NCBI GenBank assembly: GCA_021732745.1
Contig: JAKFUK010000001.1
Span: 942,931-1,006,930 of the forward strand
Direction: 5' to 3'
Length of the DNA: 64,000 nucleotides
Source of the DNA: Nevskia sp.
GTDB taxonomy: Bacteria > Pseudomonadota > Gammaproteobacteria > Nevskiales > Nevskiaceae
Position numbers and translations under genes: made by a program. Below, one piece after another: positions 9,417-61,518 of the stretch (the stretch's first letter is position 1; every line of letters starts with the position of its first letter). Under the pieces are notes generated by a model. It was not told the origin of the DNA. It saw only the letters and a program-made list of their open reading frames with translations, and searched no databases.

Positions 9417-9682
9417 AGGCGCTGCTGCTGTCGCGCGTCACGGTGGTCTGGGGCCTGCTGATCGCGGCCACCCTGCTGTCCTGGCAGCTCGGCCACGGCG
9501 TCGGCTTCGACGATGCCCGGCTCGCAGGTGCGGCGATCCTGATCGTCACCTTCATCAAGGTGCGCTTCGTGATCCGCGATTTCATGGAAATCCGCCACGC
9601 GCCGCGCTGGATGCGCCGAGTCGGCGATGGCTGGATCCTCCTGATCGTGGCGCTGCTGGTGGGTCTTTTCCTCTCCGCGTAG
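9413..9682 (+). CDS. Cytochrome c oxidase subunit IV / NorF-like small membrane protein
   Basis: This 89-residue protein has three hydrophobic segments (VVWGLLIAATLLSWQLGHG, GAAILIVTFIKVRFVIRDFMEI, WILLIVALLVGLFLS). The FIKVRFVIRDFMEIRHAP stretch is characteristic of the bacterial subunit IV/NorF family, partners of NorE. The start overlaps the NorE-like stop (ATGA). The TAG stop at 9680-9682 lies inside the GTAGGGCGGG edge of the palindromic element that follows. Confidence 0.8.
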   Translation: MKALLLSRVTVVWGLLIAATLLSWQLGHGVGFDDARLAGAAILIVTFIKVRFVIRDFMEIRHAPRWMRRVGDGWILLIVALLVGLFLSA

Positions 9683-9747
9683 GGCGGGCCGTGCCCGCCG
9701 CGCACCTCGATCGGTCGTCGCGATGTGGCGGCCACGGGCCGCCCTAC
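9679..9747. repeat. GTAGGGCGGG-type palindromic element
   Basis: It starts GTAGGGCGGGCCGTGCCCGCC and ends with the inverse, GGCGGCCACGGGCCGCCCTAC. It lies between two convergent genes and supplies the TAG stop codon of both (9680-9682 on plus, 9744-9746 on minus). Related elements are at 16675, 26493 and 55301. Confidence 0.85.
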
Positions 9748-11429
9748 GCGGCGCGTTCGCGCCACCAGAGCAGGCCGGCGACGATCAGCCAGGCGAGGAA
9801 CCACGGCCAGCGCGGCAGGCGGACTTGCACGCGGGTCTGCGGCAGGCTTGTCGACGCTTCGCGTTGCAGCTTGCGCGTCGCTTCACGATCGCGCGCTGCA
9901 TGCAGGCCGCGGGCATCGTTGGCCGCGCGCACGAACATCGGCCAAGTGTCAGCAGCGGTTTGCAGCCGATGCCAGCCGGCTTCTCCCGGCCAGACGGCGG
10001 CGCAGCCATCGGCGCGAACACTCAGGGCCAGTGCCACACCATCCGGCGACAGCAGGCTGGCCGCTGCTCCCAATCCGCACAGCACCGCGCGTTCATCGAC
10101 CCAGGCCTCGCCCGGCAACTGCGGCCCGGCTTCAGGCGGCGGGACCGGCCGGCTGAGCACCGCCAGCGCATCGCCCCATAGCGCGCCGTGACGCGCCGCG
10201 TCGCCGGCCAGCACCAGCCGGTAACTGTCGAGCAGGGTCCAGATCGCGATCCGGCCCGCACCGCGCGCGCGCCAGGCAGCGAGCACGGTGCCGTCGTCTG
10301 CACGCAGCAAGGGCGTGATGTCCGAAGACGCCGCGATCACCACCGGCGCGGCCGTGAAACCGTCGCGTTCGCGCATCGCCAGCCGGCGATCGAGCGTCAG
10401 CGACAGCGGCGCATCGGCAGCGGTGGTCGGGAAACCGAGCGCCGCCCAATCGGCCGCGACGGCCGGTTCCAGCGGCCCGGTCGCTTTCAGGATCAGGCCC
10501 AGGCCGCTGTCGACTGCGGCCAGCAGCGCGGCTTTTTCATCGGCTGTGAGCAGCGCCCAGGCGCGTTCGTCGATGACCAGCAGATCGCTGGCCGCGAGCG
10601 TTTCCGGCGTCAGCGTCGTGTTGTCGGCAGATAGCGCGACACCTTCGCTCAAGCCCGCGCGATAGGCCACGGCCAGCCCGGCGTCCTGCGCCCAGCGCCG
10701 CCAGTACTTGGCATCGGCATCCGGCGTGCCGGCGAGGAAGCGCAGCGACAGGCGCTCGCCGGCTTCGACGATCAGCGGCACGGCGGCAACATCGAGCAGC
10801 GCATCGGCAGCATCGAAGGCGCGCAACGCGAAGGCCGTTGCACCGGCGGCGCGGGCCATCATCGACAACTGGAAGCCGCCTTCACCGTCGACGGCGGCGA
10901 CTTCGACCTGCGCGCCGCTCGGGTCGTGCAGCGCGACCCGGACGGCAGGCGTCGCCACCCGGCCGCGAATGACGATCTGGCTGCCGAGCTTCACCGTCGA
11001 AGGCGCATCAAGCGCCACGATGCCGCTTTCAGCCGCTGCATCGAAGCGCAGCGCACGTTCGCCGACCATAGCTTGATCGCGCAGCGGCAAACCGTTGCCG
11101 ACGATGTGCAGCGCGCGTGCCTGCGGATGACGGCGCAAGGCGGTCGCCAAGTCCGGCACGGCGTCCGCGCGCAGCGGCGCATCGGCACCGGGCAAGGCGA
11201 CCAGCGGCGCGAACCAGGGCAGCGCGCGCCTTTGCTCGGTGCTGGCTCCGGGCGTCAGCACGGTGAGGGTGCTGCCATCGACCGGGACCGACGGCGGCAA
11301 CAGGGTCGCGGCCAGCAAGGCGGCCGCGATCGGCTGCAACCAGAACGCCGGATCGCGCCAGGGTCGACGGCGCGCGCGCCACAGGCCGATCAGGGTCGCA
11401 GCCGCGATCAGCAGCAGGGCGGCGTTCAT
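9744..11429 (-). CDS. Large membrane-anchored protein closing the TldD-MoxR operon
   Basis: This 561-residue protein starts MNAALLLIAAATLIGLW, overlapping the upstream stop (ATGA at 11426-11429). Two helices lie at the N-terminus (about 1-17 and 28-45), and one at the C-terminus (PWFLAWLIVAGLLWW). In between is a long extracytoplasmic or cytoplasmic region. Around residue 270-300 it contains DLLVIDERAWALLTADE followed by AAVDSGLGLILKATG, reminiscent of the glutamine-amidotransferase-like fold found in BatA/DUF4159-type proteins. No catalytic cysteine is evident in that stretch. Such proteins end MoxR-vWA operons. The stop codon lies in the adjacent palindrome. Function unknown. Confidence 0.75.
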   Translation of the reverse strand: MNAALLLIAAATLIGLWRARRRPWRDPAFWLQPIAAALLAATLLPPSVPVDGSTLTVLTPGASTEQRRALPWFAPLVALPGADAPLRADAVPDLATALRRHPQARALHIVGNGLPLRDQAMVGERALRFDAAAESGIVALDAPSTVKLGSQIVIRGRVATPAVRVALHDPSGAQVEVAAVDGEGGFQLSMMARAAGATAFALRAFDAADALLDVAAVPLIVEAGERLSLRFLAGTPDADAKYWRRWAQDAGLAVAYRAGLSEGVALSADNTTLTPETLAASDLLVIDERAWALLTADEKAALLAAVDSGLGLILKATGPLEPAVAADWAALGFPTTAADAPLSLTLDRRLAMRERDGFTAAPVVIAASSDITPLLRADDGTVLAAWRARGAGRIAIWTLLDSYRLVLAGDAARHGALWGDALAVLSRPVPPPEAGPQLPGEAWVDERAVLCGLGAAASLLSPDGVALALSVRADGCAAVWPGEAGWHRLQTAADTWPMFVRAANDARGLHAARDREATRKLQREASTSLPQTRVQVRLPRWPWFLAWLIVAGLLWWRERAA

Positions 11430-13501
11430 CGCCCCGCCTCTGACAGACCATCCAGCCAGGCCTGCCCGGCCGCATCCGGCAAGCGACGCGCCTTCACGGC
11501 CGACGGCGGCGCCGGCAGCAGCGGCCACAGCCGCGCCGCGAGCGCGCGACGGCAAGCCGCGCAATCCACCTCGCGCTGCACGCGGTCGGCGTCGGCGAGC
11601 AAGCCGAGCGCGTCCGCTGTCTCCGGATGTGTTTTCACCCAGGCGAGCAACGGCGCGACATCGGCGCGTCCATCGCCATCGAGTTGCCGCAGCAGTTGCG
11701 GGAACGGCGTGCTGTCGTCGATGCGCGGGTCCAGCAGGCGGCTGCGATCGGTCAAGCTGTCGCGCTCGCCGCTCAGGCGACGGGTGGCATCGAACGGCGG
11801 CAGTTCCAGGCCGGTGCGCGCCAGGTAAATCCGCTCGGCCTGCTGCACCTGCTTGATCAGGTCGAGCGCCTTGTACTCGTAGGGCAACGCGGCATCGGGC
11901 TGCGCCTGACGCAGTTGCAGCTCCGCTTGCCACATCTCGTTGAGAGCGGCGCGCAGCAGCACCTTGGTCGCCGGGTCCATGAGCGTGGCGGCTTCGGATT
12001 CGTTGTGCTCGTGGCCGAATTCGGCCAGCACATTCTCTTCGCGGCCGAAGCCGGCGGGCGCGGCCGCTGCGGCTTCGCCTTCGTGCGGCGCGCCGTTCTC
12101 GAACTCCTCGCCGAGGAATTCGCCGTAGCGCAGGCGCAGGATCTTCTGGTCGACGCCCAGCGTGTCGGCGTCTTCCTGAAGCTGGTCGGCGCTGATCGAA
12201 GGTCGCGCCGCGATCAGCGCTTCGGTGTCGATGATGATCTGCCGCTGGCTGCGGAAATAGGCCGGGGCCACTTTCTGCACCGTGCCTTCAAGGCCTTCGC
12301 CGATCGGGCCGCTGTCCGGCGGCCAGCGCAGGATCAGGCTCGGGCTTGTGCTGTTTTGCGCAGCCGGTTCGCGGCGGTCGGCAACGCTCAGCCGCACGAT
12401 CAGGTCGTCGCCCTGCGCAAAACCGAGCGCCTTCAGATCGAGCGCGGTGCGATAGCGGCGCGCCTTGCCGTCACCCTCGCCGGCAAGCTTCACCTGCTGC
12501 TCGCTGAGCTTGACCTGGTCACCCGCGCCCTGCGCGAGGCCGATGCTCAGCTCGGCCTCGCCAAGGCCGTAATCGTCCCTGGCCTCGAAGCGCAGATTCC
12601 ACTGGTCTTGTGCGGCGTGGATCACGGTCAGCGTCTGCTCCGGCTCGCGGACCAGGATTTCCGGCGGCTGATCGGCGATCACATCAAGGCGGCTGGCGCG
12701 GTCATCGGCCAGTGCGGCCGCGCCACGCAATTCGATGCGGTAGAGCGTTGCCGTGTCGATCACCCGGCTGCCGCGCCAGTCGTCGCCGCTGCGGGTCAGC
12801 GCAAGGCGGGCATCGTCGTGGAAGCGCAGTTCGACGGCTTCCGCCGTGCGATCGAGCCTGAGCCGCCATTCCACCGTACTGCCAGCGGCAAACTTGGCAT
12901 CGAGCCTGTCCAGCCGGGACTCCGGCAGACCGGTGTAGGCCGGCGGCGTGATCGCCAGTCGGACGGCCGTGATTTGCGTGCCCGAGGCATCTGCTCGTGC
13001 CGCGCTGGCGGTGATCGCTTCCGGCGCGGGCAGCACGGCGCGCAGGCTGGGCAGCAACTGCGCAAAGCCAACCAGCGCAAGCCCGGCAAGCCACAGCTTT
13101 TGCAAGCGGCGACGCGGCCACGGTGCGCGCAGATCAGGGGCATCGTTTGCCAGCCGGGACGCCATGCGGCTGCGGATGCGCGCCTGCTGGAAGGCAGCCA
13201 AGGCGCTGGCAGGCAGACCCGGCTGCACGGCCAGCGCGCTGCTGTCCTCGAAATCCGGACAGGTGGCGTCCAGTTGCCGCAGCAGCCAGCCCGGATCGTG
13301 CCGCCGCGCGTGGCGAATCGCAGCGGCGATCACGCCGATGAGGGCGGCGATCAGCACCGCGATGGCCGACGGCGGGCCTGCCAGCGAATCGCCCAGCACG
13401 GCGAAGCCGACCGCCAGCGGCAGCACGGCAGCCACGTCGATCAGCACGGCGCGCGCACTGGCGCTGCGGCGCAGGCGCGTCAGAGCCGCTTCGATGCTCA
13501 T
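11426..13501 (-). CDS. Large membrane protein of MoxR/vWA operon (DUF4175-like)
   Basis: This 691-residue protein begins MSIEAALTRLRRSASARAVLID. It has two early helices (ACVLPLA-type segment near 20-35 and AIAVLIAALIGVIAAAI near 45-60), then LLRQLDATCPDFEDSSALAV and a third helix near 130. Beta-rich repeats follow (AVRLAITPPAYTGLPES, PPEILVREPEQTLTVIHA, LRFEARDDYGLGEAELSIG) and then a charged helical tail. The TPPAYTG and DDYGL patterns are those of DUF4175-type membrane proteins. The family call is by pattern only. It overlaps its neighbours by four bases at both ends, so it is part of the same translation-coupled operon. Confidence 0.75.
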   Translation of the reverse strand: MSIEAALTRLRRSASARAVLIDVAAVLPLAVGFAVLGDSLAGPPSAIAVLIAALIGVIAAAIRHARRHDPGWLLRQLDATCPDFEDSSALAVQPGLPASALAAFQQARIRSRMASRLANDAPDLRAPWPRRRLQKLWLAGLALVGFAQLLPSLRAVLPAPEAITASAARADASGTQITAVRLAITPPAYTGLPESRLDRLDAKFAAGSTVEWRLRLDRTAEAVELRFHDDARLALTRSGDDWRGSRVIDTATLYRIELRGAAALADDRASRLDVIADQPPEILVREPEQTLTVIHAAQDQWNLRFEARDDYGLGEAELSIGLAQGAGDQVKLSEQQVKLAGEGDGKARRYRTALDLKALGFAQGDDLIVRLSVADRREPAAQNSTSPSLILRWPPDSGPIGEGLEGTVQKVAPAYFRSQRQIIIDTEALIAARPSISADQLQEDADTLGVDQKILRLRYGEFLGEEFENGAPHEGEAAAAAPAGFGREENVLAEFGHEHNESEAATLMDPATKVLLRAALNEMWQAELQLRQAQPDAALPYEYKALDLIKQVQQAERIYLARTGLELPPFDATRRLSGERDSLTDRSRLLDPRIDDSTPFPQLLRQLDGDGRADVAPLLAWVKTHPETADALGLLADADRVQREVDCAACRRALAARLWPLLPAPPSAVKARRLPDAAGQAWLDGLSEAGR

Positions 13502-14637: not shown

Positions 14638-15521
14638 GCGCGGCTCGCCCGGGACGAAAACAGCGCACGCAAAGGCGCGTCGGCCGGCTCATCGAGTGGA
14701 TGTTCGACGCCGATCACCCCGTGCTTCGCCAGCCGTCGCAGATGCTCGCGTCGCACCTCGCCGAAGCGGCTCAGGAAGCCGTCTCGCGCGCCATCGGCAT
14801 CGAGCGTGCGCTCGCGGCCGCTTTCCGGGTCGATGAAACGCTGGCTGCCGCTGAATGCGAAGCGCAGTTCGCCAAGCGTCAGGATGCGGATGGCGCGGAC
14901 ATCGCGGCGGGCAGCAGCGAGGCGTTCGCAGGACGCGGTCAGCGCTTCGTCGAAGCCGTCGCTGATGCTGACGACCAGGGCATCCGGGGCGATCTGCGCG
15001 GACAGCAGCGGCGGCGTGGCGCGTGCGCCGTCGCGGCCATCGGCGGTCAGGCTTTCGATCAGCAGCAACAGGCGATCGCGATGACGGGCACCGGCTGCCG
15101 CCGGCAGGCCCTGCGTGCTCGCGCCGCCGACGGTGATCAGGCCGACGCTGTCGCCCTGGGCGACCGCGCGCTCGGTGATGCAGGCGGCGAGCACTTTGGC
15201 GGCGTCGAGGCGGCTGTAGTCGGGGCGTTCGGGATCGGCCTGGGCCATCGAGGCCGAGCAGTCGATGACCAGCCAGACGCTTAAAGGACTGTCGCGGGTG
15301 GCATCGCGGACGAAGTAGCGATCCGAGCGGGCGAACAGCTTCCAGTCGATGCTGCGCGGCTCGTCGCCCTGGCCGTAGGACCGGTATTGCGCGAATTCCA
15401 GCCCCGCGCCGCGGCCGCGTCCGGCATGCAGGCCCAGACCCTGGCCGTTCGGCGTCAGACGGGTGCTCAAGCGCAGGCTTTTGAGGCGAGCGCGGATGGC
15501 GGGGGGGATGAGGCTGCTCAT
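14634..15521 (-). CDS. DUF58 family protein with vWA domain
   Basis: This 295-residue protein starts MSSLIPPAIRARLKSLRL. The DUF58 signature YRSYGQGDEPRSIDWKLFAR occupies residues 46-65. The vWA metal site DCSAS at 87-91 has the DxSxS spacing intact, and VVSISDGF comes later. Such proteins are the vWA partner of MoxR AAA+ ATPases and lie at the membrane face. Upstream in the same frame the sequence is palindromic-repeat DNA (15531-15638), which encodes a spurious leader; the ATG at 15519-15521 is therefore preferred. Confidence 0.88.
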   Translation of the reverse strand: MSSLIPPAIRARLKSLRLSTRLTPNGQGLGLHAGRGRGAGLEFAQYRSYGQGDEPRSIDWKLFARSDRYFVRDATRDSPLSVWLVIDCSASMAQADPERPDYSRLDAAKVLAACITERAVAQGDSVGLITVGGASTQGLPAAAGARHRDRLLLLIESLTADGRDGARATPPLLSAQIAPDALVVSISDGFDEALTASCERLAAARRDVRAIRILTLGELRFAFSGSQRFIDPESGRERTLDADGARDGFLSRFGEVRREHLRRLAKHGVIGVEHPLDEPADAPLRALFSSRASRA

Positions 15522-15530
15522 CTCGGGCTC

Positions 15531-15638
15531 CCCTCTCCCCCTGGGAGAGGGGATGGGGGTGAGGGGCGCTGCTGGATCAGGCCGCCCCCGATCTCGATGA
15601 GTGCGTCCCTCACCCAACCCTCTCCCGGGGGGAGAGGG
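15531..15638. repeat. CCCTCTCCC/GGGAGAGGG palindromic element between moxR and DUF58 gene
   Basis: The left arm is CCCTCTCCCCCTGGGAGAGG with GGGGGTGAGGGG. The right arm is CCCTCACCCAACCC, then TCTCCCGGGGGGAGAGGG. It is the same family as at 43730, 54759, 57373 and 62765. It lies inside an operon, so it is presumably transcribed as a large hairpin and could set the ratio of the two gene products. Confidence 0.85.
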
Positions 15639-15654
15639 CTTGCGGCGCGCTTCG

Positions 15655-29819: not shown

Positions 29820-30347
29820 ATGCCGCATTACATCCGCGCTTTCGTTCCAGGTGGCACTTTCTTTTTCACCGTGGCGTTGCTGGAACGCCAGCGAACGCTG
29901 CTGACCGACCACATCGACAACCTGCGCACGGCATTCGTCGACGCGCGACGGCGGCGTCCTTTCACGATCGACGCCATCGTTGTACTGCCGGATCACCTTC
30001 ACTGCATCTGGACACTGCCGCCGGACGATGCAAATTTCTCGGCCCGCTGGCACGACATCAAATCGCGCTTTTCGGCGCGAATCCGGCCTGGCGAGCGATT
30101 GTCCGCCCGACGAATCAAGAAAGGAGAACGCGGCATCTGGCAACGCCGATTCTGGGAGCACTGCATTCGCGACGAGCGGGACTTTGTCCACCACGCGGAT
30201 TACCTGCATTTCAATCCCGTCAAGCATGGTCATGTTTTACGTGTGCTTGACTGGCCGCTTTCGACCTTTCATCGCTCCGTGAAGGATGGCGCTTGTCCCT
30301 CTGATTGGGGCGGTAACGCGCACGTCACGGATTGGCATCTGGAATGA
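29820..30347 (+). CDS. REP-associated tyrosine transposase (RAYT, Y1 family)
   Basis: This 175-residue protein starts MPHYIRAFVPGGTFFFTVAL, typical of RAYTs. It has the HUH pair in VLPDHLHCIWTLP (H59, H61), WQRRFWEH near 107-114, and the catalytic tyrosine in DYLHFNPVKHG (Y128). RAYTs are IS200-like single-strand nucleases that bind and move REP palindromes. The gene is flanked on both sides by palindromes of one family (29678-29779, 30358-30389), as expected for a RAYT and its cognate REPs. All key residues are present, so it is probably active. Confidence 0.93.
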   Translation: MPHYIRAFVPGGTFFFTVALLERQRTLLTDHIDNLRTAFVDARRRRPFTIDAIVVLPDHLHCIWTLPPDDANFSARWHDIKSRFSARIRPGERLSARRIKKGERGIWQRRFWEHCIRDERDFVHHADYLHFNPVKHGHVLRVLDWPLSTFHRSVKDGACPSDWGGNAHVTDWHLE

Positions 30348-39703: not shown

Positions 39704-39726
39704 GCCCCGGATTTCATCCGGGCTAC
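39704..39726. repeat. GCCCCGGATTTCATCCGGGCTAC element
   Basis: This is a single short palindrome of the family at 29086. It provides the TAG stop (39723-39725, minus) of the LigT-like gene. Confidence 0.75.
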
Positions 39727-40304
39727 GTGGGTGGTTCCAGCAGGCCCAGCTGCGGATTCAACTTTGGAGGAGTTGCCGCAAGCGGCCAGCGCCCGACCAC
39801 CTCGTACCGATACGGCTGACCGCCGCCCCGCACCAGCAGCAGTTCATCGACCATCCACTCGATCGGTTCGATGACCACCGACGGCAAAGGCGTCGGGGCC
39901 TTGTAGCTGATCGTCACCTGCGGGCCGTGGCCGCTGTCGTCGAGGATGCCTTCGGCCAGCAGTGCTGCCCGGACCGCGCTCAGCATGACCTCCAGCCCCT
40001 TGGGTTTGCCCAGGGTGCGGAACGCCCAGTGAATGCCTCGGGGCCCGACACCGGTGCCGTTGATGCGATTGAGCGTCATCACGAAGGATGGTGCCGCAAC
40101 CCGGGCACCGGCACGCAGCATGGCGGCCCGAATCTTCGGCTGGTCGTCCTGGCGGTCGGAAAACGACTGATGCCAGTTGCCCGGCTCGAACTGCGCTGCG
40201 CCCAGCCGCTCGTCGAGACCATTGGCGGCAACCGCCGCTTCCATCCGCGCGCGGATCGCAGGCGGCGGCTGCGCCATGAAGATCAGTGGATCGAGCCTGG
40301 CCAC
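39723..40304 (-). CDS. 2'-5' RNA ligase / LigT-like 2H phosphoesterase
   Basis: This 193-residue protein starts MARLDPLIFMAQPPPAIRAR, a common opening for 2'-5' RNA ligase family proteins. The first HxS/T motif is WHQSF near residue 45. Where the second HxT should be, the sequence reads GPQVTISY, with glutamine in place of histidine, so phosphodiesterase activity may be lost or altered. Its physiological job is unknown. It lies between two toxin-antitoxin pairs in the block that separates acnD from prpF. Confidence 0.75.
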   Translation of the reverse strand: MARLDPLIFMAQPPPAIRARMEAAVAANGLDERLGAAQFEPGNWHQSFSDRQDDQPKIRAAMLRAGARVAAPSFVMTLNRINGTGVGPRGIHWAFRTLGKPKGLEVMLSAVRAALLAEGILDDSGHGPQVTISYKAPTPLPSVVIEPIEWMVDELLLVRGGGQPYRYEVVGRWPLAATPPKLNPQLGLLEPPT

Positions 40305-45073: not shown

Positions 45074-45101
45074 ACTGGATCCCGGCTTTCGCCGGGATGA
45101 C
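45074..45101. repeat. GGATCCCGGCTTTCGCCGGGAT element
   Basis: A single short palindrome of the family also seen at 57911 and 58754 lies in the 103-base prpB-prpC gap. Confidence 0.75.
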
Positions 45102-45110
45102 GCTATCGCG

Positions 45111-46252: not shown

Positions 46253-47833
46253 ATGCAAAACACCGAATCCGCCCTGCCCGCGATCTGGACCGTCAGCGTC
46301 ACCCGGCTGTCGCGGCTGATGCAGGAAGTCTCGCCGGAATTCGACGGCCGCGCGCTGATCGACCCCATCGACCTCGGCTTCGAGGAAGCGGTCAGCCACA
46401 TCCGCGAGCGGCTGATCACCGATGACTGCGATGTCGTGCTGTCGGCCGGTTCCAACGGCGAATACCTGCGCAACCGCATCGACAAGCCGATCGTGCTGGT
46501 CCGCCCCGACGGCTTCGACCTGATGCAGGCGCTAACCCGAGCGCGCCGCCATTCGAGCCGCATCGGCATCGTCAGCTACGGGGTCGAGTTGCCGGCGTTC
46601 AGCGCTTTCAAGCAGGAATTCGGGCTCAGCATCGAGCAGCGCGCCTACACCCACACCGAGGAAGCGCGCGACCGGGTTGCGGAATTGGTCGGTCTGGGAT
46701 GTGGCGCGATCGTCGGCACCGGCTATGTCTCCGAACTGGCCGACCGCGCCGGAGCCGTCGGCATCCTGATGTACTCGCCGGACTCGATCCGCCGCGCCTT
46801 CGAGCAGGCCATCGACCTCGCCCGCATGCTGACCAATGCCCGCAGCGGTGTCCGCCGCGCGGCGACCGCGCCCGATTCCCGTTACAGCCTGCGGCGATTG
46901 ATCGGCAACAGCGAAACGATGGTGGCGCTACGCGATCAGGTGCGGCTGTTCGGTGCCAGCGACCGCACCGTGCTGATCACCGGCGAAACCGGCACCGGCA
47001 AGGAACTGGTCGCCCAGGCGCTGCATGGCGCGAGCCCCAGGCGAAGTGCTGCGTTCGTGGCGATCAACTGCGGCGCGGTTGCGGAATCGCTGCTCGAATC
47101 GGAACTGTTCGGCTATGCCGATGGCGCTTTCACCGGCTCGCGCCGGGGTGGCCGGGTGGGCCTGATCGAAGCAGCCAACGGCGGCACGCTGTTTCTCGAC
47201 GAGATCGGCGAAATGCCGCTGGCGCTTCAGACCCGGCTGCTGCGGGTGCTGGAGGAGCGCGAGGTGCTGAGGGTCGGCAGCGTGCGGGCAACACCGATCG
47301 ACGTGCGGGTAATCGCCGCCACCCATTGCGAGCTCGACAACCTTGTCCGCGAAGGCCGCTTCCGTCGCGATCTGTACTACCGGCTCAACGTGTTGCGTAT
47401 GTCGCTGGCACCGCTGCGCGAGCATGCCGACGACGTGCCGCTGCTGCTGATGGGCTTCCTGCGCGCAGCCGGTGCCGGCGCGATGGTCATCGACGGCCCG
47501 GCGCAAGCCACGCTGCTGCGCCACGACTGGCCCGGCAACATCCGCGAACTGCGCAACCTGGCCGAACGGATCGCGGTGCTGGGGCATGCGGCGTCGCCGC
47601 TGTCGGCGCTGACCCGGCCGCTGCTGCTGCGCTGTGCGCCGGAGATGTTCGCGGCCCTGTCCGCACCGATCGCCGAAACACTCGTCAGCGGCGAGCACGC
47701 CGTTTCGCGCCAACGCCCCGAGCCGGCAGCCTTGCAAGCGCTGCTGCAACAGCATCGCGGCCAGCGCGGCGCAATGGCTGCGGCACTCGGAGTGTCGCGC
47801 AGCACGCTGTGGCGGTGGATGCAGGACGGATAG
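46253..47833 (+). CDS. prpR: Sigma-54-dependent propionate catabolism activator PrpR
   Basis: This 526-residue protein has an N-terminal PrpR sensory domain (about 1-190, TVSVTRLSRLMQEVSPEFDG near the start; binds 2-methylcitrate in characterised homologues). A sigma-54 AAA+ domain follows, with Walker A GETGTGKE near 243-250 and the sigma-contact loop GAFTGS near 291-296. PrpR proteins keep S in place of the usual final A. The C-terminal HTH is GAMAAALGVSRSTLWRWMQ. It should activate the divergent prp operon from the promoter at 46083. Confidence 0.95.
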   Translation: MQNTESALPAIWTVSVTRLSRLMQEVSPEFDGRALIDPIDLGFEEAVSHIRERLITDDCDVVLSAGSNGEYLRNRIDKPIVLVRPDGFDLMQALTRARRHSSRIGIVSYGVELPAFSAFKQEFGLSIEQRAYTHTEEARDRVAELVGLGCGAIVGTGYVSELADRAGAVGILMYSPDSIRRAFEQAIDLARMLTNARSGVRRAATAPDSRYSLRRLIGNSETMVALRDQVRLFGASDRTVLITGETGTGKELVAQALHGASPRRSAAFVAINCGAVAESLLESELFGYADGAFTGSRRGGRVGLIEAANGGTLFLDEIGEMPLALQTRLLRVLEEREVLRVGSVRATPIDVRVIAATHCELDNLVREGRFRRDLYYRLNVLRMSLAPLREHADDVPLLLMGFLRAAGAGAMVIDGPAQATLLRHDWPGNIRELRNLAERIAVLGHAASPLSALTRPLLLRCAPEMFAALSAPIAETLVSGEHAVSRQRPEPAALQALLQQHRGQRGAMAAALGVSRSTLWRWMQDG

Positions 47834-47892
47834 ACGACGCGCCGCATGCGAACATCCGCCATCCCCCGAAAGCCTCCGAAAGCTCCCGAAAG

Positions 47893-48462
47893 ATGGCCAA
47901 GCTGTACTTCCGCTACGCCGCCATGAACGCCGGCAAATCCACGGCGCTGCTCCAGGTGGCCCACAACTACGAGGAGCGCGGCCAGCGCGTGGATCTGTTC
48001 ACGTCCGCGCTCGATGTCCGTTCCGGCTACGGCCGGATCGCGTCAAGGCTCGGCATGACCCGCGAAGCGGAAGCCTATTCGGCGACCACCGACTTCGCGT
48101 CGATCTACCGGGTTCGCCCCGCACCCGCCTGCATCCTGATCGACGAAGCACAGTTCCTGACCGAGGCGCAGGTGATCCAGCTGCATCGCAACGCGCATCT
48201 GAACGGCATTCCGGCGATCTGCTACGGCATCCGTAGCGATTTTCGCGGCGAGGCCTTTCCAGGATCGCGCGCCCTGCTGACCATTGCTGACGACCTCGAA
48301 GAAATGAAAACCGTCTGCCGCTGCGGCCGCAAGGCGACCATGAACCTGCGATTCGACTCAACCGGCCAGCAGGCGCTGTTCGGCGAACAGGTCGAGATCG
48401 GTGGCGAGGATCGCTACGAGGCGGTCTGTGCGCGGCGTTTCTATACCGGCACCTGCACGTAG
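47893..48462 (+). CDS. tdk: Thymidine kinase
   Basis: This 189-residue protein starts MAKLYFRYAAMNAGKSTALL. P-loop MNAGKST is at about 11-17, Walker B CILIDEAQF near 80, and substrate-lasso residues are FRGEAFPGSRALLTIAD. Zinc cysteines are visible in VCRCGRKA, with a further one in VCARRF. It salvages thymidine to dTMP. The stop TAG (48460-48462) belongs to the palindromic element that follows. It is 59 bases after prpR but functionally unrelated. Confidence 0.92.
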   Translation: MAKLYFRYAAMNAGKSTALLQVAHNYEERGQRVDLFTSALDVRSGYGRIASRLGMTREAEAYSATTDFASIYRVRPAPACILIDEAQFLTEAQVIQLHRNAHLNGIPAICYGIRSDFRGEAFPGSRALLTIADDLEEMKTVCRCGRKATMNLRFDSTGQQALFGEQVEIGGEDRYEAVCARRFYTGTCT

Positions 48463-48525
48463 GTCCGAATTGATCCGGACGCTTTTCGGGTCGACAAGGG
48501 CGCAGTCCGGATGAATCCGGACCTA
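48459..48525. repeat. GTAGGTCCGAATTGATCCGGAC palindromic element
   Basis: The left arm is GTAGGTCCGAATTGATCCGG and the right arm GTCCGGATGAATCCGGACCTAC. A short related half copy (AGGTCCGGATGAACC) is at 51319-51333, after the old yellow enzyme gene. Confidence 0.8.
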
Positions 48526-48535
48526 CGTGCAGCGT

Positions 48536-54411: not shown

Positions 54412-55304
54412 CCGATCACCGGCGAAGACATCCCCGACGACAGCGCCCGCGTGCCGCTGGATCGCTACATCAGCCCGCGCAAGGCCGAATGGCCGGTGGC
54501 GGATTTCGTGGTGGGGAATCCGCCGTTTCTCGGCAAGGGCGAATCCATGCGCAGCGCGCTCGGCGACGGTTATCTCGGCGCGCTGCGCAGCACTTGGCCG
54601 GCCGCGCCGGAATCCGCCGATTTCGTGATGGTCTGGTGGCACAAGGCCGCCTCGCTGACTCGCAGCGGTCAGCTCGAACGCTTCGGCTTCATCACCACCA
54701 ACTCGATCAAGCAGACCTTCAACCGCCGCGCCATCGAAACCGCGATGGCCGCTTTGCCCCCCTCTCCCCCCGGGAGAGGGGTTGGGGGTGAGGGACTCCG
54801 CTTACGACGTAGCGGCATCTCATCGAGCAGCGCCCCTCACCCAACCCTCTCCCGGGGGGAGAGGGCTATTCGGTGGCGTTGTCGGGGGGAGAGGGCTTTG
54901 CCGCGCAAACATCGGCGAGCGCCGCGCTGATCGCCCGCATCGGCCAACTTGGCGAAGCGATCGACGCCCATCGCAAGCGCCAGCAGGCCACGCATCCGGG
55001 CCTGACCCTGACCGGCATGTACAACGTGCTGGAACAACTGCGGCGCGGCATGGCGCTGACGCATAAGGAAAAGCTCATCCGCGAGCAGGGGCTGGTGTCG
55101 GTGCCGGCCAGCCTGCACGACGAACTCGACGCGGCCGTGCTCCACATCTACGGCTGGGACGATCTGGCCGCAGCACTGGTCGGCAAACCCGGCGGCACGC
55201 TGTCGTATCCGGAAGCGGGTGAAGCGCAAGTGGCGGCCGAAGCCGAACTGCTGTCGCGGCTCGTGGCCCTGAACGCCGAACGCGCCGCCGAAGGAGCAAG
55301 GTAG
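54412..55304 (+). pseudogene. Broken SAM-dependent DNA methyltransferase (MmeI/type IIG-like)
   Basis: The 5' part reads [15 protein letters not shown] (catalytic NPPF motif of N6-adenine methylases), then [26 protein letters not shown] and [19 protein letters not shown]. The reading is cut by the palindrome at 54759-54895. After it, in a different frame, the C-terminal part continues with [40 protein letters not shown] and [14 protein letters not shown], ending AERAAEGAR. The SAM-binding N-terminal region, the target-recognition part and the extreme C-terminus are missing. The TAG stop is in the following palindrome. No active product is expected. Confidence 0.8.
54759..54895. repeat. CCCTCTCCC/GGGAGAGGG element inside the broken methyltransferase
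   Basis: CCCTCTCCCCCCGGGAGAGG with GGGGGTGAGGG at left and CTCACCCAACCC, then TCTCCCGGGGGGAGAGGG at right, followed by a partial extra arm to 54895. It joins two methyltransferase pieces that are in different frames. Confidence 0.85.
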
Positions 55305-55370
55305 GGCGGGTCGCGACCCGTCATGATCGCAGCGCAACCGTCAAAAGCGGCGGGTCGCGACCCGCCCTAC
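55301..55370. repeat. GTAGGGCGGGTCGCGACCC palindromic element
   Basis: It starts GTAGGGCGGGTCGCGACCCG and ends GGGTCGCGACCCGCCCTAC. It cuts off the last part of the methyltransferase remnant and supplies its stop codon. Confidence 0.85.
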
Positions 55371-55384: not shown

Positions 55385-55455
55385 GTAGGTCGGCAATCCT
55401 TTGCCGACATCCGCCCTCGCCCGAAAGGCCCGGCGGCAAGGGATTGCCGCCCTAC
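55385..55455. repeat. GTAGGTCGGCAATCC palindromic element
   Basis: It starts GTAGGTCGGCAATCCTTTGC and ends GCAAGGGATTGCCGCCCTAC. The right edge supplies the TAG stop of flhB (55452-55454). It stands 14 bases from the preceding element, so two different families are in tandem. Confidence 0.85.
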
Positions 55456-56585
55456 GAAGGCGGCAGCGGATCGGGCTCGCCGCCCGGCACATCGCCGACC
55501 TTCGGCAGCAGCGGACGATCACCGCCGCGCCAGGCGCGCAGCTGGAACACGTAGGTCAGCACCTGGGCGACGGCGGCGTAGAGCTGGGCGGGGATTTCGT
55601 CGTCGAGATCGCAGCCGCGATACAGGGCGCGGGCCAGCGGCGGGGCTTCGATCATCGGGATGCGGTGTTCGCCGGCCAGCTCGCGGATCGCCGCGGCTAC
55701 CGTGTCGACGCCCTTGGCGATCACCACCGGCGCGCGGTTCTTGCCAGCGGTGTATTTGAGCGCCACGGCGTAGTGCGTGGGGTTGGTGACGATGACATCC
55801 GCCCCTGGCACCTTGTCCATCATCCGCCGCTGCGACAGCTCGGCCTGCATGCGTCGGATGCGGCCCTTGACCTCGGGGTTGCCTTCGCTCTGCTTGTATT
55901 CCTGCTTCACTTCCTGGCGCGACATCTTCAGTTGCTTGGCGTAGCTGAACAGCTGCCAGGGCACGTCGATGAAGGCGATCAAGCCCAAGGCGGCGCACAT
56001 CCAGATGAAGCTCGACGCGACCAAGCCCAGGCCGTGGCCGATCGCCTGACCCGATGGTTCGACCCCCAGCCCCAGCAGCTCGCCGCGCGCGCCCCACCAG
56101 CTGATGAAGGCCACGAGACCCACGATCAGGAACTTGGCGATGCTCTTGCCCAGCTCGACCAGGCTGTTGGTCGAGAACATGCGGCCCAAGCCGGTGATCG
56201 GGTTCAGGCGGCTGAAATCCGGTTGCAGCGCCTTGGAACTCAGGTTCCAGCCGCCGATCAGCATCGGCGCGACCAGTGCTGCGAAGAAGGTGGCGAGCAT
56301 GATCGGAGCCACGATCAGCAGGCCGGACAGCATGGCGTTGCCGATCGTCGACGCCATGCGCGACGGGTCGACGAGCGCTGCTGCATCGAAGCGCAAGCCG
56401 CTCTGCATGAAGCTGAACGCGCGACGGCCGAGGGTGTCGCCCCAGGCGATCATCAGCGCCGCACCGGCGCCCATCACCACGGCAGTCGAGAGTTCGCGCG
56501 AGCGCGGGAGCTGGCCTTTTTCCCGCGCGTCGCGCTTGCGTTTTTCGGTCGCGGGTAAGGTTTTTTCTTCAGTGCTGTCAGACAC
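55452..56585 (-). CDS. flhB: Flagellar biosynthesis protein FlhB
   Basis: This 377-residue protein has the FlhB N-terminus (EEKTLPATEKRKRDAREKGQ), four helices between about 30 and 215, then the cytoplasmic domain with the self-cleaving NPTH motif near residues 266-269 (ADVIVTNPTHYAVALKY). It controls the export switch from rod-hook to filament substrates. The last 20 residues are followed by a stop in a palindrome. It overlaps fliR by eight bases and ends the flagellar operon. Confidence 0.95.
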   Translation of the reverse strand: MSDSTEEKTLPATEKRKRDAREKGQLPRSRELSTAVVMGAGAALMIAWGDTLGRRAFSFMQSGLRFDAAALVDPSRMASTIGNAMLSGLLIVAPIMLATFFAALVAPMLIGGWNLSSKALQPDFSRLNPITGLGRMFSTNSLVELGKSIAKFLIVGLVAFISWWGARGELLGLGVEPSGQAIGHGLGLVASSFIWMCAALGLIAFIDVPWQLFSYAKQLKMSRQEVKQEYKQSEGNPEVKGRIRRMQAELSQRRMMDKVPGADVIVTNPTHYAVALKYTAGKNRAPVVIAKGVDTVAAAIRELAGEHRIPMIEAPPLARALYRGCDLDDEIPAQLYAAVAQVLTYVFQLRAWRGGDRPLLPKVGDVPGGEPDPLPPS

Positions 56586-57363
56586 TGGCGCGGCTCCTGA
56601 ACAGTTCGCCGATCAGCGTGAACGCCTGATCGAGCATGTGATTGAGCACCGCAGCGAGCGTCGGCAGGCTGTAGCTGAGCAGCACCAGGCCCGCCCCGAG
56701 GGCGATCGGAAAGCCGACCGACAAGGCACTCAAGGCCGGTGCCGAACGGCTCATCACGCCAAACGCCAGATTGACCAGCAGCAGCGCGATCATCACTGGA
56801 AGTGCGATCTGCACGCCGCCGACAAACAGGTTCGAGCCCCAGCGAGCGAGCATCGAAAAGGCTTCGGCATCCAGCCCCGCGCCGCCGACCGGCAGCGTCT
56901 GAAAGCTCACCGCCAGCGCTTCGATCAGCCGCAGATGACCGCCGACCGACAGAAACAGCAGCGTCGCCATCACCATCAGCAACTGACCGACAACCGGCGT
57001 GCCGGCGCCCCGCAGCGGATCGACCAGCTGCGCGAAGCTCAAGCCCATGCCGTAGGAAATCAGTTCGCCGGCCAGCACCACGGCCTCGAAGACGATCATC
57101 AGCACGAAGCCCATCGCGATACCGATGAGCAGTTGCTGGCCGACTTCCAGCCACCATTCGGCCTTGAAGGTTTCCAGGTAAGGCGCGGCGGGCAGCAGCG
57201 GGGCGATGACCATGGTCAACAGCACCATCAGCACCACGCGAATGCGTACCGGCACCACCCGCCCGCCGAGCACAGGTGCCGTGGCCAGCACGCCACCGAT
57301 CCGGACCATCGGCCAGAACCAGTCTTCGAGCCAGGCGATCAGTTGGGTGTCGGTGAAGGTCAT
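56578..57363 (-). CDS. fliR: Flagellar biosynthesis protein FliR
   Basis: This 261-residue protein has the expected five or six helices and the FliR patterns WFWPMVRIGGVLATAPVLGG near the start, then VPVRIRVVLMVLLTMVIAPL and GELISYGMGLSFAQLVDP. It is part of the FliPQR export gate of the flagellar type III secretion system. The stop lies inside flhB's start. A large palindrome (57373-57491) sits immediately upstream of its ATG. Confidence 0.95.
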   Translation of the reverse strand: MTFTDTQLIAWLEDWFWPMVRIGGVLATAPVLGGRVVPVRIRVVLMVLLTMVIAPLLPAAPYLETFKAEWWLEVGQQLLIGIAMGFVLMIVFEAVVLAGELISYGMGLSFAQLVDPLRGAGTPVVGQLLMVMATLLFLSVGGHLRLIEALAVSFQTLPVGGAGLDAEAFSMLARWGSNLFVGGVQIALPVMIALLLVNLAFGVMSRSAPALSALSVGFPIALGAGLVLLSYSLPTLAAVLNHMLDQAFTLIGELFRSRASV

Positions 57364-57372
57364 GATGGTCTC

Positions 57373-57491
57373 CCCTCTCCCCCCGGGAGAGGGGTCGGGG
57401 GTGAGGGCGCGCGGCTTGACGTGAAGCGCTCCCCATCCAGCGGCGCTCCCTCACCCGGCGCTATCGCGCCGACCTCTCCCGGGGGGAGAGG
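57373..57491. repeat. CCCTCTCCC/GGGAGAGGG palindromic element between fliQ and fliR
   Basis: CCCTCTCCCCCCGGGAGAGG with GGGGGTGAGGGC at left and CCCTCACCCGG, then CCTCTCCCGGGGGGAGAGG at right. It starts only ten bases before the fliR start codon and so lies over or near its ribosome binding site. Confidence 0.85.
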
Positions 57492-57910: not shown

Positions 57911-57996
57911 TCTGGATCCCGGCGTTCGCCGGGATGACCCGTTGTATTGAGCCCCCTTCTCAAATCCGTCACCCCGGCGCAGGCCGGTGTCCAGAG
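57911..57996. repeat. Degenerate GGATCCCGGCGTTCGCCGGGAT elements between fliP and fliQ
   Basis: One good palindrome (GGATCCCGGCGTTCGCCGGG near 57914-57935) and a degenerate partner (CACCCCGGCGCAGGCCGGTG near 57970) lie 50 bases apart. They belong to the same family as 45074 and 58754. Confidence 0.65.
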
Positions 57997-58011
57997 TCGC
58001 CGGCGAAAACC

Positions 58012-58863
58012 TCAACCGGTCACGAAACTCGCCGCCAGCGTCCCCATCACCAGCGACCAGCCATCAACCAGCACGAACAGCATCAGCTTGAACGGCAGCG
58101 AGATGATCACGGGCGAGAGCATCATCATGCCGAGGCTCATCAGCACGCTGGCCACCACCAGATCAATGACCACGAACGGGATGAACAGCAGGAAGCCGAT
58201 CTGGAACGCGGTGGTCAGTTCGCTGGTGAGAAACGCGGCGGCCAGCACGGTGAACGGCACCGCATCGGCATCGGCATACGGCCCGTTGCCAGCAATCTTC
58301 GCGAAGGTCATCAGGTCCGCTTCGCGGGTCTGCGCCATCATGAAACTGCGGATCGGTTTGGCGGCCGCCGCCAACGCTGGTTCGAACTGCATCTGGCCGT
58401 CCAGATAGGGCTTGGCAGCGTCGGTGTAAACCCGATCGAATACCGGTTGCATCACGAAAAAGGTCAGAAACAGCGCCAGGCCAATCAGAATCTGGTTCGA
58501 CGGCGTGCCGCCGGTGCCCAGCGCCTGGCGCAGCAGACCTAGCACCACGACGATGCGGGTGAACGCGGTCATCGCCAGCAGCCCGGCCGGCAGCAGGGTC
58601 AGTGCCGTCATCATCAACAGCACTTGCAGGCTCAAGCTGTAGCTCTGCCCGCCGCCCGGGGTCGGGCTGACGTTCAGGGCAGGCAGGCCGCTGGTTTGGG
58701 CGAAGACTTCTGCCATCGGCAGCATCAACAGCAGCGCGACGCCAAAAGTCCTGGTCATTCCGGCGAAAGCCGGAATCCAGTTGCCTACCCGCAGCGCAGC
58801 CGTCGAGACTGGATTCCGGCTTTCGCCGGAATGACGGGATTCAAGGTTCATCGAATGCCTCAT
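58012..58863 (-). CDS. fliP: Flagellar biosynthesis protein FliP with palindrome inserted in its 5' end
   Basis: The protein has 283 residues if the ATG at 58861-58863 is used, which overlaps the fliO stop (ATGA). The first 35 residues (RHSGESRNPV, then [10 protein letters not shown]) are translated palindrome, and the normal signal peptide TRTFGVALLLMLPMAEVFAQ follows. ATG at 58756-58758 would give 248 residues, the usual FliP length. The core has SLQVLLMMTALTLLPAGLLAM, TAFTRIVVVLGLLRQALG and IPFVVIDLVVASVLMSLGM, the standard FliP signatures. It forms the pentameric ring of the export gate. Confidence 0.92.
   Translation of the reverse strand: MRHSMNLESRHSGESRNPVSTAALRVGNWIPAFAGMTRTFGVALLLMLPMAEVFAQTSGLPALNVSPTPGGGQSYSLSLQVLLMMTALTLLPAGLLAMTAFTRIVVVLGLLRQALGTGGTPSNQILIGLALFLTFFVMQPVFDRVYTDAAKPYLDGQMQFEPALAAAAKPIRSFMMAQTREADLMTFAKIAGNGPYADADAVPFTVLAAAFLTSELTTAFQIGFLLFIPFVVIDLVVASVLMSLGMMMLSPVIISLPFKLMLFVLVDGWSLVMGTLAASFVTG
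58754..58835. repeat. TCATTCCGGCGAAAGCCGGAAT palindromic element inside fliP
   Basis: TCATTCCGGCGAAAGCCGGA at left and its inverse TTCCGGCTTTCGCCGGAATGA at right, 30 bases apart. It encodes the repeat peptides SRHSGESRNPV and WIPAFAGM in the FliP frame. It keeps the frame open. Confidence 0.9.
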
Positions 58864-59266: not shown

Positions 59267-59620
59267 TTACTTGAGCTTGCGGATGCGTTCGGCCGGGCTG
59301 ACCACGTCGGTCAGGCGGATGCCGAATTTTTCATTGACCACCACCACTTCGCCGTGGGCGATCAGGGTGCCGTTGGCATAAACATCGAGCGGCTCGCCGG
59401 CCGCGCGTTCCAGTTCGACGACCGAGCCCTGGTTGAGCTGCAAGAGATTCCTGATCGGAATCCGCGCCCGGCCGACTTCCATCGACAGGGTGACGGCGAC
59501 ATCGAGGATGACGTCGAGATTGAAATCGCCGGTCGCCGCAGCGGCCGCGCCTTCGAGGTTGTCGAAACTGGCGCGGGCGTATTCCTTGGCGGCACCGGGG
59601 GCGTTGGTGGCGGTGGTCAT
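59267..59620 (-). CDS. fliN: Flagellar motor switch protein FliN
   Basis: This 117-residue protein has an N-terminal spacer followed by the SpoA/FliN domain: ILDVAVTLSMEVGRARIPIR, LLQLNQGSVVELERAAGEPL and VYANGTLIAHGEVVVVNEKF. It forms the bottom of the C ring with FliM and takes part in switching and export. It lies 40 bases after fliM and 20 before fliO. Confidence 0.95.
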   Translation of the reverse strand: MTTATNAPGAAKEYARASFDNLEGAAAAATGDFNLDVILDVAVTLSMEVGRARIPIRNLLQLNQGSVVELERAAGEPLDVYANGTLIAHGEVVVVNEKFGIRLTDVVSPAERIRKLK

Positions 59621-59660
59621 GTCGGAGTCCTGAGTGCTGTGGGTACGAAAAATGAGGGGA

Positions 59661-60650
59661 TCAGTGCAGCGCGGCGCTGCGCGGGCCGCGGCGGATCACT
59701 TCGGTGATCTTCACGGCGTTCTTGCCGTGGGACACGCCGAAGCTGCCCTTGAACACCGGCATGTCCTCGACGCAGAGGTCGATGGTCTTCGGCAGGTTCA
59801 TCGGCAGCACGTCGCCAGCTTTCAGTTGCAGCAGCTGGCGAACGCTCAGATTCATGGTGCCGAGCTGGCTGCTGATGTCGACTTCGGCGTCCTGCAGCTG
59901 CTCTCTGAGCGCGATGGTCCAGCGCTCGTCCTTCTCGACGCGGTCGGACTGCAAGCCGGTGTCGAGCTGATCGCGGATCGGCTCGATCATCGAATACGGG
60001 AACGTGATGTGCAGATCGCCGCCGCCGCCTTCGAGCTCGATCTTGAAGCGCGACACCACGACGATTTCCGACGGGCTGACGATGTTCGCGAAGTGCGGAT
60101 TGACTTCGGAGTTCATGTACTCGAACTCCATGTCCATCACCGGCGACCAGGCTTCGGTGAGATCGGCGAACGCCTGCTTGAGCAGCAATTGCACGACGCG
60201 CATCTCGGTCGGCGTGAATTCGCGGCCTTCGATGCGGGTGTGGATCTTGCCGTCGCCGCCGAAGAAGTTTTCGACCACCGAATACACCAGGCGCGGCTCG
60301 AAGATGAACAGCGCGGTGCCTCTGAGCGGCTTGACCCGGACCAGATTCAGGCTGGTCGGCACGAACAGCGAATGGGTGTATTCGCTGAACTTGGCCATCT
60401 CGATGCCGACCACCGACAGTTCAGGGGAGCGGCGCAGCATGTTGAACAGGCCGATGCGGAACAGGCGCGCGAAGCGCTCGTTGATCATCTCCAGGGTCGG
60501 CAAACGGCCACGGACGATGCGGTCCTGAGTCGCGAAATTGAAGTTGCGCGCTTCGCCCGGGGCCGCCGGCGGCGTCTCGGTTTCGACCGCACCGCTGTCG
60601 ACGCCGTTGAGGAGGGCGTCGATCTCGTCCTGGGAAAGCAGATCCTGCAT
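59661..60650 (-). CDS. fliM: Flagellar motor switch protein FliM
   Basis: This 329-residue protein starts MQDLLSQDEIDALLNGVDSG, the N-terminal peptide LSQDEIDALL that binds phosphorylated CheY. The middle domain has GRLPTLEMINERFARLFRIG, then YSVVENFFGGDG. The C-terminal FliN-like domain has LRVQ-type SpoA sequence (ISSQLGTMNLSVRQLLQLKAG). It is of normal length and complete. Confidence 0.96.
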   Translation of the reverse strand: MQDLLSQDEIDALLNGVDSGAVETETPPAAPGEARNFNFATQDRIVRGRLPTLEMINERFARLFRIGLFNMLRRSPELSVVGIEMAKFSEYTHSLFVPTSLNLVRVKPLRGTALFIFEPRLVYSVVENFFGGDGKIHTRIEGREFTPTEMRVVQLLLKQAFADLTEAWSPVMDMEFEYMNSEVNPHFANIVSPSEIVVVSRFKIELEGGGGDLHITFPYSMIEPIRDQLDTGLQSDRVEKDERWTIALREQLQDAEVDISSQLGTMNLSVRQLLQLKAGDVLPMNLPKTIDLCVEDMPVFKGSFGVSHGKNAVKITEVIRRGPRSAALH

Positions 60651-60680
60651 GGCGTGCTCCGGGTCCGGTCGAGGTGGCGC

Positions 60681-61241
60681 TTACTGCATGACGAAGCTGG
60701 TGAAGTAGACGGCGTCGATGCCGGTCTTGCCGGTCTCCGCCTTGAGGATTCGCTGGATTTCCTCCAGCACCTTCTTCTGCAGCACTTCCTTGGCTTCGCG
60801 CGAGCTGATGTCGGGGAGCGTCTGGGCACCGAGCAGCATCAGCAGGGCGTTGCGAATCTGCGGGTCGTGCAGCTTCAGCGCTTCAACGGCGGCAGCATTG
60901 CGCGCCCGCAGCTGCATCTCGATCTGCAGGAAATGCGAGGACTCGCTGTCGCCGATGTTGACCACGAAGGACGGGGTCATCGGGTGATAGATGGCCGGGC
61001 CTTTCTTGGCGTCTTCGCCTTCCGCTTCGCCCGCTTCACCTTCGGCAGCGGCACCGTGCTCGCCGGCGGCGGCTTCGTCGCCTTCCGCCGCTGGCGCGTG
61101 CTTGGCCGGCTTCGCCGACGGCATCAGGAAGAACATGCCGCCGCCGGTCAGCGCTGCGGTCACCACCACGGCACCGACGATCGGGATCAGCAGGGCTTTC
61201 TTGCCGCTCGGTGCTTTCGGTGCTTCGGCTGCTGCGGACAT
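60681..61241 (-). CDS. fliL: Flagellar basal-body protein FliL
   Basis: This 186-residue protein has one helix near the N-terminus (ALLIPIVGAVVVTAALTGGG at 16-35), an Ala/Glu-rich linker (about 48-80), and the periplasmic FliL domain (YHPMTPSFVVNIG, then RNALLMLLGAQTLPDISSRE). It supports stator function and swarming. AGGAG lies six bases before the ATG at 61239-61241. It is the first gene of the operon. Confidence 0.95.
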   Translation of the reverse strand: MSAAAEAPKAPSGKKALLIPIVGAVVVTAALTGGGMFFLMPSAKPAKHAPAAEGDEAAAGEHGAAAEGEAGEAEGEDAKKGPAIYHPMTPSFVVNIGDSESSHFLQIEMQLRARNAAAVEALKLHDPQIRNALLMLLGAQTLPDISSREAKEVLQKKVLEEIQRILKAETGKTGIDAVYFTSFVMQ

Positions 61242-61285
61242 GGACGGCTCCTGAGGGATCGGTACTCGCGTTTGCAAGCCGGGGA

Positions 61286-61300
61286 GCAAGCCATGTGCCA
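61286..61300 (-). promoter_or_regulatory. Sigma-54 (RpoN) promoter for the fliL operon
   Basis: On the minus strand TGGCAC (61300-61295), five bases, then TTGC (61289-61286), followed by T. This is an exact -24/-12 match. Transcription would start near 61274, 33 bases before fliL. In Pseudomonas the same genes are driven by RpoN and FleQ. Confidence 0.85.
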
Positions 61301-61447
61301 CGCCGTTACCGGCTCAGGAACCTGTTTGAGGTCAATGCTTTGGACGCAGCCAACGAGGGCCGACGGGATTCTGTCACGACGATTTCCGCGATCGCCGCAG
61401 TTGCTGCGACGGAAATGCGGCGCGGGTTTCGATCCGCTCGCTTCGCC

Positions 61448-61518
61448 GTAGGTCGGCAATCCTTTGCCGACATGCTTTCTTGTTCGAAGGTGTCGGCGGC
61501 AAGGGTTTGCCGCCCTAC
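61448..61518. repeat. GTAGGTCGGCAATCC palindromic element
   Basis: It starts GTAGGTCGGCAATCCTTTGC and ends GCAAGGGTTTGCCGCCCTAC. The right edge supplies the TAG stop (61515-61517) of the gene next to bchD. The rest of the gap from 61242 holds the fliL promoter and nothing else recognised. Confidence 0.85.

What the first reader, a model, noticed from the sequence alone, without database searches (positions are those of the whole stretch)
9679..61518. Palindromic elements supply the TAG stop codon of seven genes
Seven gene ends fall on the TAG of a GTAG.../...CTAC element edge: NorF-like (9680-9682), the 561-residue membrane protein (9744-9746), the LigT-like gene (39723-39725), tdk (48460-48462), the methyltransferase remnant (55302-55304), flhB (55452-55454) and the bchD-linked gene (61515-61517). 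Four different element families share this edge. Either the elements insert preferentially at TAG stop codons or they have replaced native gene ends while bringing a stop. The outer GTAG seems selected for exactly this.
Basis: seen in the sequence. Interest (0 to 1): 0.75.

Follow-up and report, generated by a model that had tools for sequence, protein, structure and literature searches.

The report
Mobile palindromes sitting on TAG stops
In this bacterium, small mobile DNA palindromes that start with GTAG lie exactly on the TAG stop codons of many genes, and related genomes with few such elements suggest they often arrived at stop codons that were already TAG, leaving the proteins almost unchanged.

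Summary
In detail: all seven window ends fall on the TAG of a GTAG-headed palindrome. In a 1.264 Mb sample of the 3.99 Mb genome (1,050 called genes), 28 of 141 heads coincide exactly with a same-strand stop; none has its nearest stop 1 to 60 nt inside the element, and just downstream the rate is about 1.7 per position. The elements are GTAG-type REP dimers (REPINs) with resident RAYT transposases. That GTAG REP ends often supply TAG stops was published in 2013; the count of the register and the comparison with REP-poor relatives are added here. For 20 of 28 affected genes, the closest relative without a recognised REP there ends in TAG in 10 (other genes 20 of 149), has equal length in 10 and is within one residue in 14. 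One further gene is truly truncated. Best reading: REP dimers insert in register at gene ends, with a bias to pre-existing TAG stops, where they do little harm; GTAG is the transposase's motif, not a stop-codon device. Against a pure version: CGTAG stops are too many (34, about 9.5 expected), half of the closest relatives have another stop, and a Stenotrophomonas-like genome shows only 1 of 35.

The parts
9679..9747 (.). REP dimer (GGCGGGCC/GGCGGCCC) between convergent genes; left TAG ends 9413-9682(+), right TAG ends 9744-11429(-)
39706..39726 (-). single REP (CCCGGATG type); its TAG ends 39723-40244(-)
48459..48526 (.). REP dimer (GTCCGGAT); left TAG ends thymidine kinase gene 47809-48462(+)
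55301..55370 (.). REP dimer (GGCGGGTC); left TAG ends the truncated gene 54873-55304(+)
55385..55455 (.). REP dimer (GTCGGCAA/GGCGGCAA); right TAG ends the FlhB-family gene 55452-56474(-)
61448..61518 (.). REP dimer (GTCGGCAA/GGCGGCAA); right TAG ends DUF2944 gene 61515-62105(-); two relatives have CCG TAG here without a recognised REP
1293..1363 (.). REP dimer (GGCGGCAA) not at a stop codon
16675..16761 (.). REP dimer (GGTGGGCA) not at a stop codon
26493..26626 (.). REP pair (GGCGGGTC) not at a stop codon
29086..29150 (.). REP dimer (CCCGGATG) not at a stop codon
35416..35487 (.). REP dimer (GTCGGCAA/GGCGGCAA) not at a stop codon
29820..30347 (+). RAYT gene (NF047646 REP-associated tyrosine transposase, 193 bits), with GTAGGGCGGGAAAG heads on both sides

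Best explanation
The elements are GTAG-tagged REP dimers (REPINs/BIMEs) of several families, spread in this lineage by resident RAYT (TnpA-REP) single-strand transposases. They enter at the 3' ends of genes in exact register with the stop codon, with a bias towards stops that are already TAG. Inferred step: TnpA-REP cuts at C|T, and TAG is the only stop codon whose complement (CTA) holds that dinucleotide, next to sequence that can match the GTAG guide. After insertion the gene still ends in TAG at or near its old end, so the event is almost neutral and survives, whereas insertions elsewhere in genes are removed. Dimers that end both genes of a convergent pair probably arose by joining two such ends (recombination or deletion between elements) or by insertion into tightly packed or overlapping gene ends. 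Shown: the in-register excess, near-native ends, TAG enrichment in REP-poor relatives, RAYT genes bracketed by REPs. Inferred: the C|T/CTA target rule, later upkeep of the TAG by selection, and the recombination step.
For: 28 of 141 heads at offset 0, none at +1 to +60. REP heads lie on 28 of 127 TAG stops; none lies directly behind any of the 923 TGA or TAA stops (offset -4 empty; test). 25 of 34 CGTAG stops are REP-headed, against 66 of 270 intergenic and 7 of 1,669 coding CGTAG sites. Closest relative without a recognised REP there: TAG 10/20 against 20/149, CGTAG 6/20 against 2/149 (strict 7/17 and 3/17). G005, with 2 heads of these families in 280 kb (7 per Mb against 107 per Mb here), has TAG at 7 of 16 affected genes against 7 of 60 others. 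At 61515, G005 and G011 have CCG TAG with no recognised REP; a downstream motif lies 29 nt beyond the dimer here and 30, 31 and 24 nt beyond the stop in G005, G015 and G011. In none of the 24 stop ends that belong to dimers does an in-register stop follow the far side of the element, so the native stop was not pushed downstream (the other 4 of 28 ends are single heads, not examined). Seven Y1_Tnp loci, all matching the REP-associated tyrosine transposase model, 5 of 7 above its cut-off; L071 and L069 have heads of one REP group on both sides.
Against: CGTAG stops number 34 where the rate in non-REP genes and two relatives predicts about 9.5 (P about 5e-10), so most cannot have been native CGTAG; the element must supply the G, perhaps the C too, at many sites. 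The closest relative has TGA or TAA at 10 of 20 genes. Lengths match less often than for other genes (10/20 against 111/149, p = 0.03). At the seven intergenic or stop elements of L054 and L034 checked against relatives the sites were too diverged to read a target, and one G015 site (L054 10657) shows no GTAG. 4 of 12 relatives' ends tested can fold a 7-8 pair hairpin behind the stop and may hold decayed elements. In a Stenotrophomonas-like genome only 1 of 35 heads is at a stop. The C|T rule predicts C outside the far end of every stop dimer; it is there in 6 of 12 one-stop dimers.
Confidence: 0.55

Rival explanations
1. Random insertion plus selection only: elements land anywhere near gene ends and bring their own TAG; only those that happen to terminate the frame within a residue or so of the old end survive.
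For: C-termini differ by 1-3 residues in several cases; CGTAG stops exceed the native pool; coding insertions are rare (7 of 1,669 coding CGTAG sites); half of the closest relatives have TGA or TAA.
Against: Landing at native length plus or minus one residue offers about three positions, so about 5 events at the downstream rate of 1.7 per position, against 28 seen (the estimate is mine). No out-of-frame case. No displaced native stop in 24 of 24 dimer ends. TAG is enriched in relatives without a REP there.
Confidence: 0.25
2. The elements replaced native gene ends and their TAG is a new, often truncating stop.
For: True for 54873-55304, whose orthologues continue 113-131 residues, and partly for L034_835- (7 residues longer in G005).
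Against: 14 of 20 genes end within one residue of the closest relative; 54873-55304 itself was left out of those 20 by the length rule.
Confidence: 0.08
3. Selection keeps REPs directly at stop codons because the hairpin serves termination, mRNA stability or translation control.
For: Occupancy of CGTAG is higher at stops (25 of 34) than in intergenic DNA (66 of 270), p = 3e-8. A 2025 paper cites work that REPs within 15 nt of a stop lower translation in E. coli (passages of PMC12306157; the cited work itself not seen).
Against: Heads at 6-20 nt downstream should serve as well yet are spread thinly (25 over 15 positions); REP-poor relatives have the same genes without a REP there.
Confidence: 0.12

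Closest known systems
GTAG-tagged REPs (Di Nocera et al. 2013, PMC3733652)
   Same: GTAG head, short GC-rich stem-loop, head-out dimers, location at gene 3' ends; the paper itself says GTAG REP termini often provide the TAG stop to flanking ORFs
   Different: In the parts I read (abstract, section 15, first half of the discussion) the paper gives no count of these stops, no frame test and no comparison with empty sites; here the register is counted and relatives compared
REPINs and RAYTs (Bertels and Rainey 2011, PMC3116915; Nunvar et al. 2010, PMC2817692; Nunvar et al. 2013, PMC3686654)
   Same: Dimers of inverted REPs with a tyrosine transposase gene flanked by REPs; in PMC2817692 REPs lie close to or right behind the rayt stop codon (passages)
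   Different: 14 of 22 fluorescent pseudomonad families listed in PMC3686654 are GTGG-headed, which cannot give a stop (passages); the words stop codon do not occur in the main texts of PMC3116915 and PMC3686654
IS200/IS605 transposons
   Same: Related single-strand transposase; target chosen by a guide sequence 5' of a palindrome (passages of PMC8266576)
   Different: The elements carry no transposase gene and their target is only inferred here

Membership tests
GTAG REP / REPIN | GTAG tetranucleotide 5' of an imperfect palindrome | tested here: met
   134 of 341 body hits (palindromes read in both directions) carry exact GTAG; commonest near variants GTGG 7, GCAG 6
GTAG REP / REPIN | Many copies per genome, several families | tested here: met
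   141 heads in 1.264 Mb; one 22-mer has 25 exact copies in the whole genome
GTAG REP / REPIN | Paired inverted REPs with heads outward | tested here: met
   48 dimers and 45 single heads
GTAG REP / REPIN | Cognate RAYT gene flanked by the same REPs | tested here: met
   7 PF01797 loci, 5 of 7 above the NF047646 REP-associated tyrosine transposase cut-off, the other two at 67 bits of 80; L071 and L069 have heads of one REP group on both sides, the window RAYT (L072) another type; L066, L067 and L070 show no head within about 1.5 kb, L068 only on one side
GTAG REP / REPIN | Mobility in the present-day strain | not testable with these tools
   one genome per species; presence/absence against relatives only
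IS200/IS605-like targeting | Insertion next to a fixed short target sequence present before insertion | tested here: inconclusive
   TAG and CGTAG enriched in relatives without a REP there, but CGTAG total exceeds the native pool and the intergenic sites were unreadable

The most novel reading that the evidence does not exclude
The TAG stop codon itself is an insertion target of RAYT-driven elements: because CTA, its complement, holds the C|T cut site matched to the GTAG guide, the transposase finds harmless ports at gene ends, which spares the host and keeps the frame.
Probability: 0.4. Interest if true: 0.68.

Novelty: new variant of a known kind. Interest (0 to 1): 0.47.

Why it matters
The dissemination of REPs is called poorly understood in the abstract of PMC8266576 (seen in the listing). 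An in-register excess at TAG stops, with TAG already present in REP-poor relatives at half of the genes compared, gives a concrete target-site hypothesis that can be tested in vitro with purified TnpA-REP and single-stranded targets, and would explain how such elements can multiply in dense genomes without breaking genes.

Tried and rejected
A TA target-site duplication (GTA|G...C|TAC from a GTAC target) was considered and dropped because relatives carry GTAG, not GTAC, at the sites that could be read. Flank palindromes outside the dimers are only weakly in excess (sum 46 against 35.7 after shuffling, p = 0.03) and were not pursued. Sites in L054 and L034 relatives were too diverged to read a target. 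Generality: with one rule, heads of these families number 2 in 280 kb of G005, 8 in 400 kb of G002, 4 in 232 kb of G011 and 6 in 200 kb of G014 (searches used other seed rules and gave 0, 4, 4 and 6), too few to test; the Stenotrophomonas-like G312 gave 1 of 35. A pure pre-existing CGTAG target model was rejected by the count of CGTAG stops. Rows dropped: 8 of 28 affected genes have no usable orthologue end, one of them (54873-55304) only because its orthologues are far longer; in the strict test I dropped L046, L051_3367 and 9413 as possible decayed elements or neighbours of another repeat. In one search I reset one relative (G015 at L050_4282) from REP to no REP by hand; G011, not G015, was the closest relative used there. 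The 69 pairs added from L198-L217 were not screened for REPs.

Full report
What was checked. The window is G000:C1:942931-1006930 of a 3.99 Mb, six-contig genome; named relatives of one window protein are metagenome genomes filed as Nevskia, Lysobacteraceae, Lysobacterales and Gammaproteobacteria. The seven claimed gene ends are all there and all use the TAG of a GTAG head.

Is it more than chance. I took 60 stretches of 20 kb plus the window, 1.264 Mb, and called 1,050 genes with a simple hexamer model. GTAG followed by a stem-loop or exact prefix of a repeated family occurs 141 times. Measuring from the head's TAG to the nearest same-strand stop gives 28 at offset 0, none at -1 to -5, none from +1 to +60, and 25 spread over -6 to -20. 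If elements cut gene ends in random frame, about two thirds should read into the element. Heads sit on 28 of 127 TAG stops; none directly follows any of the 923 other stops. Of 34 CGTAG stops 25 carry a REP, against 66 of 270 intergenic and 7 of 1,669 coding CGTAG sites. A body search that ignores the head finds the same set plus one TTAG end.

What the elements are. They form 48 head-out dimers and 45 single heads. The genome has seven Y1_Tnp loci; all seven proteins match NCBI's REP-associated tyrosine transposase model, five above its cut-off. L071 and L069 have heads of one REP group on both sides, and the one inside the window (29820-30347) has another GTAG type around it. These are GTAG REPs/REPINs with RAYTs. 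Di Nocera et al. 2013 already write that GTAG REP termini often provide the TAG stop to flanking ORFs (passages, section 15 and part 1 of 2 of section 17 read).

Are the ends native. Orthologous ends were fetched from relatives found by synteny. In the first look 17 of 28 affected genes had an orthologous end, and one, 54873-55304, was clearly truncated. With further loci, 20 of 28 have a usable orthologue without a recognised REP at the stop; the closest one has equal length in 10 of 20 and is within one residue in 14 of 20, against 111 and 125 of 149 for other genes. So ends are near native but shifted more often than usual.

What stood there before. Heads of these families number 107 per Mb here and 7, 20, 17 and 30 per Mb in the samples of G005, G002, G011 and G014, so their ends should mostly be pre-insertion states. 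The closest relative without a recognised REP has TAG in 10 of 20 affected genes and 20 of 149 others (p = 4e-4), CGTAG in 6 of 20 and 2 of 149; leaving out three doubtful rows, 7 of 17 and 3 of 17 (p = 0.009 and 0.008). For comparison, non-REP TAG genes have TAG in 6 of 15 closest relatives and TGA genes in 9 of 110, so the affected genes behave like ordinary TAG genes. The clearest site is 61515: G005 and G011 have CCG TAG without an element, G015 CCG TAA, and a downstream motif stays at a similar distance (29 nt here, 30, 24 and 31 nt there). In 24 of 24 stop ends of dimers no in-register stop follows the far side of the element. At several stops a relative carries a different REP prefix, for example 55452 (G011) and L045_1 (G014).

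What does not fit. CGTAG stops total 34 where about 9.5 are expected, so the element must contribute the G and perhaps the C at many sites. Half of the closest relatives have TGA or TAA. Six of 48 dimers end both genes of a convergent pair. For L048 the two genes lie 1.4 to 5.3 kb apart in G011, G015 and G005; for window 9679 the one relative with strong matches to both genes, G010, has them on different contigs; this suggests recombination between elements, but for L017 and L051 the neighbours are conserved. C stands before the stop head in 10 of 12 one-stop dimers but before the far head in only 6 of 12, which the C|T rule does not predict. In a Stenotrophomonas-like genome the excess is weak, 1 of 35.

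Mechanism. Corneloup et al. 2021 report that E. coli TnpA-REP cuts at C|T, 5' or 3' of the REP, that the S. maltophilia enzyme also cuts at CT, and suppose that GTAG selects the CT site; a third enzyme cuts CT and CA (passages and section 28 read). TAG is the only stop codon whose complement contains CT. I infer that this makes TAG stops acceptable targets, and that insertion there is tolerated because the stop is kept. The exact cut (GTA|G or after GTAG) could not be resolved.

On print. The stop-codon overlap is in print. Searches and 67 of the held library, and the passages read, showed no test of TAG stops as REP insertion targets; subscription papers are mostly not held.

Noticed in passing
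L110 (G005), opposite the L051 site: Both convergent genes end on TAG followed by GGAATCTC, apparently the two ends of another inverted repeat, so a second kind of element may do the same.
   Followed up: no
window 54873-55304: Gene ended early by a REP dimer; orthologues continue for 113-131 residues.
   Followed up: partly
L088, L118, L122: In these relatives a hairpin between convergent gene ends carries a TGA at each side of its base.
   Followed up: no
G312 sample (L178-L197): REP heads there are preceded by T (20 of 35) instead of the C seen in this genome.
   Followed up: no
window 15518-15640, 54747-54867, 57360-57407, 62765-62841: Repeats of the type CCCTCTCCC...GGGAGAGGG, a separate palindromic family.
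   Followed up: no
window 45074-45102, 57911-57939, 58808-58836: Repeats CTGGATCCCGGC-TTCGCCGGGATGAC, another dispersed family.
   Followed up: no
L017 8486-8587: Three REP heads in one cluster, with both outer edges serving as stops.
   Followed up: partly
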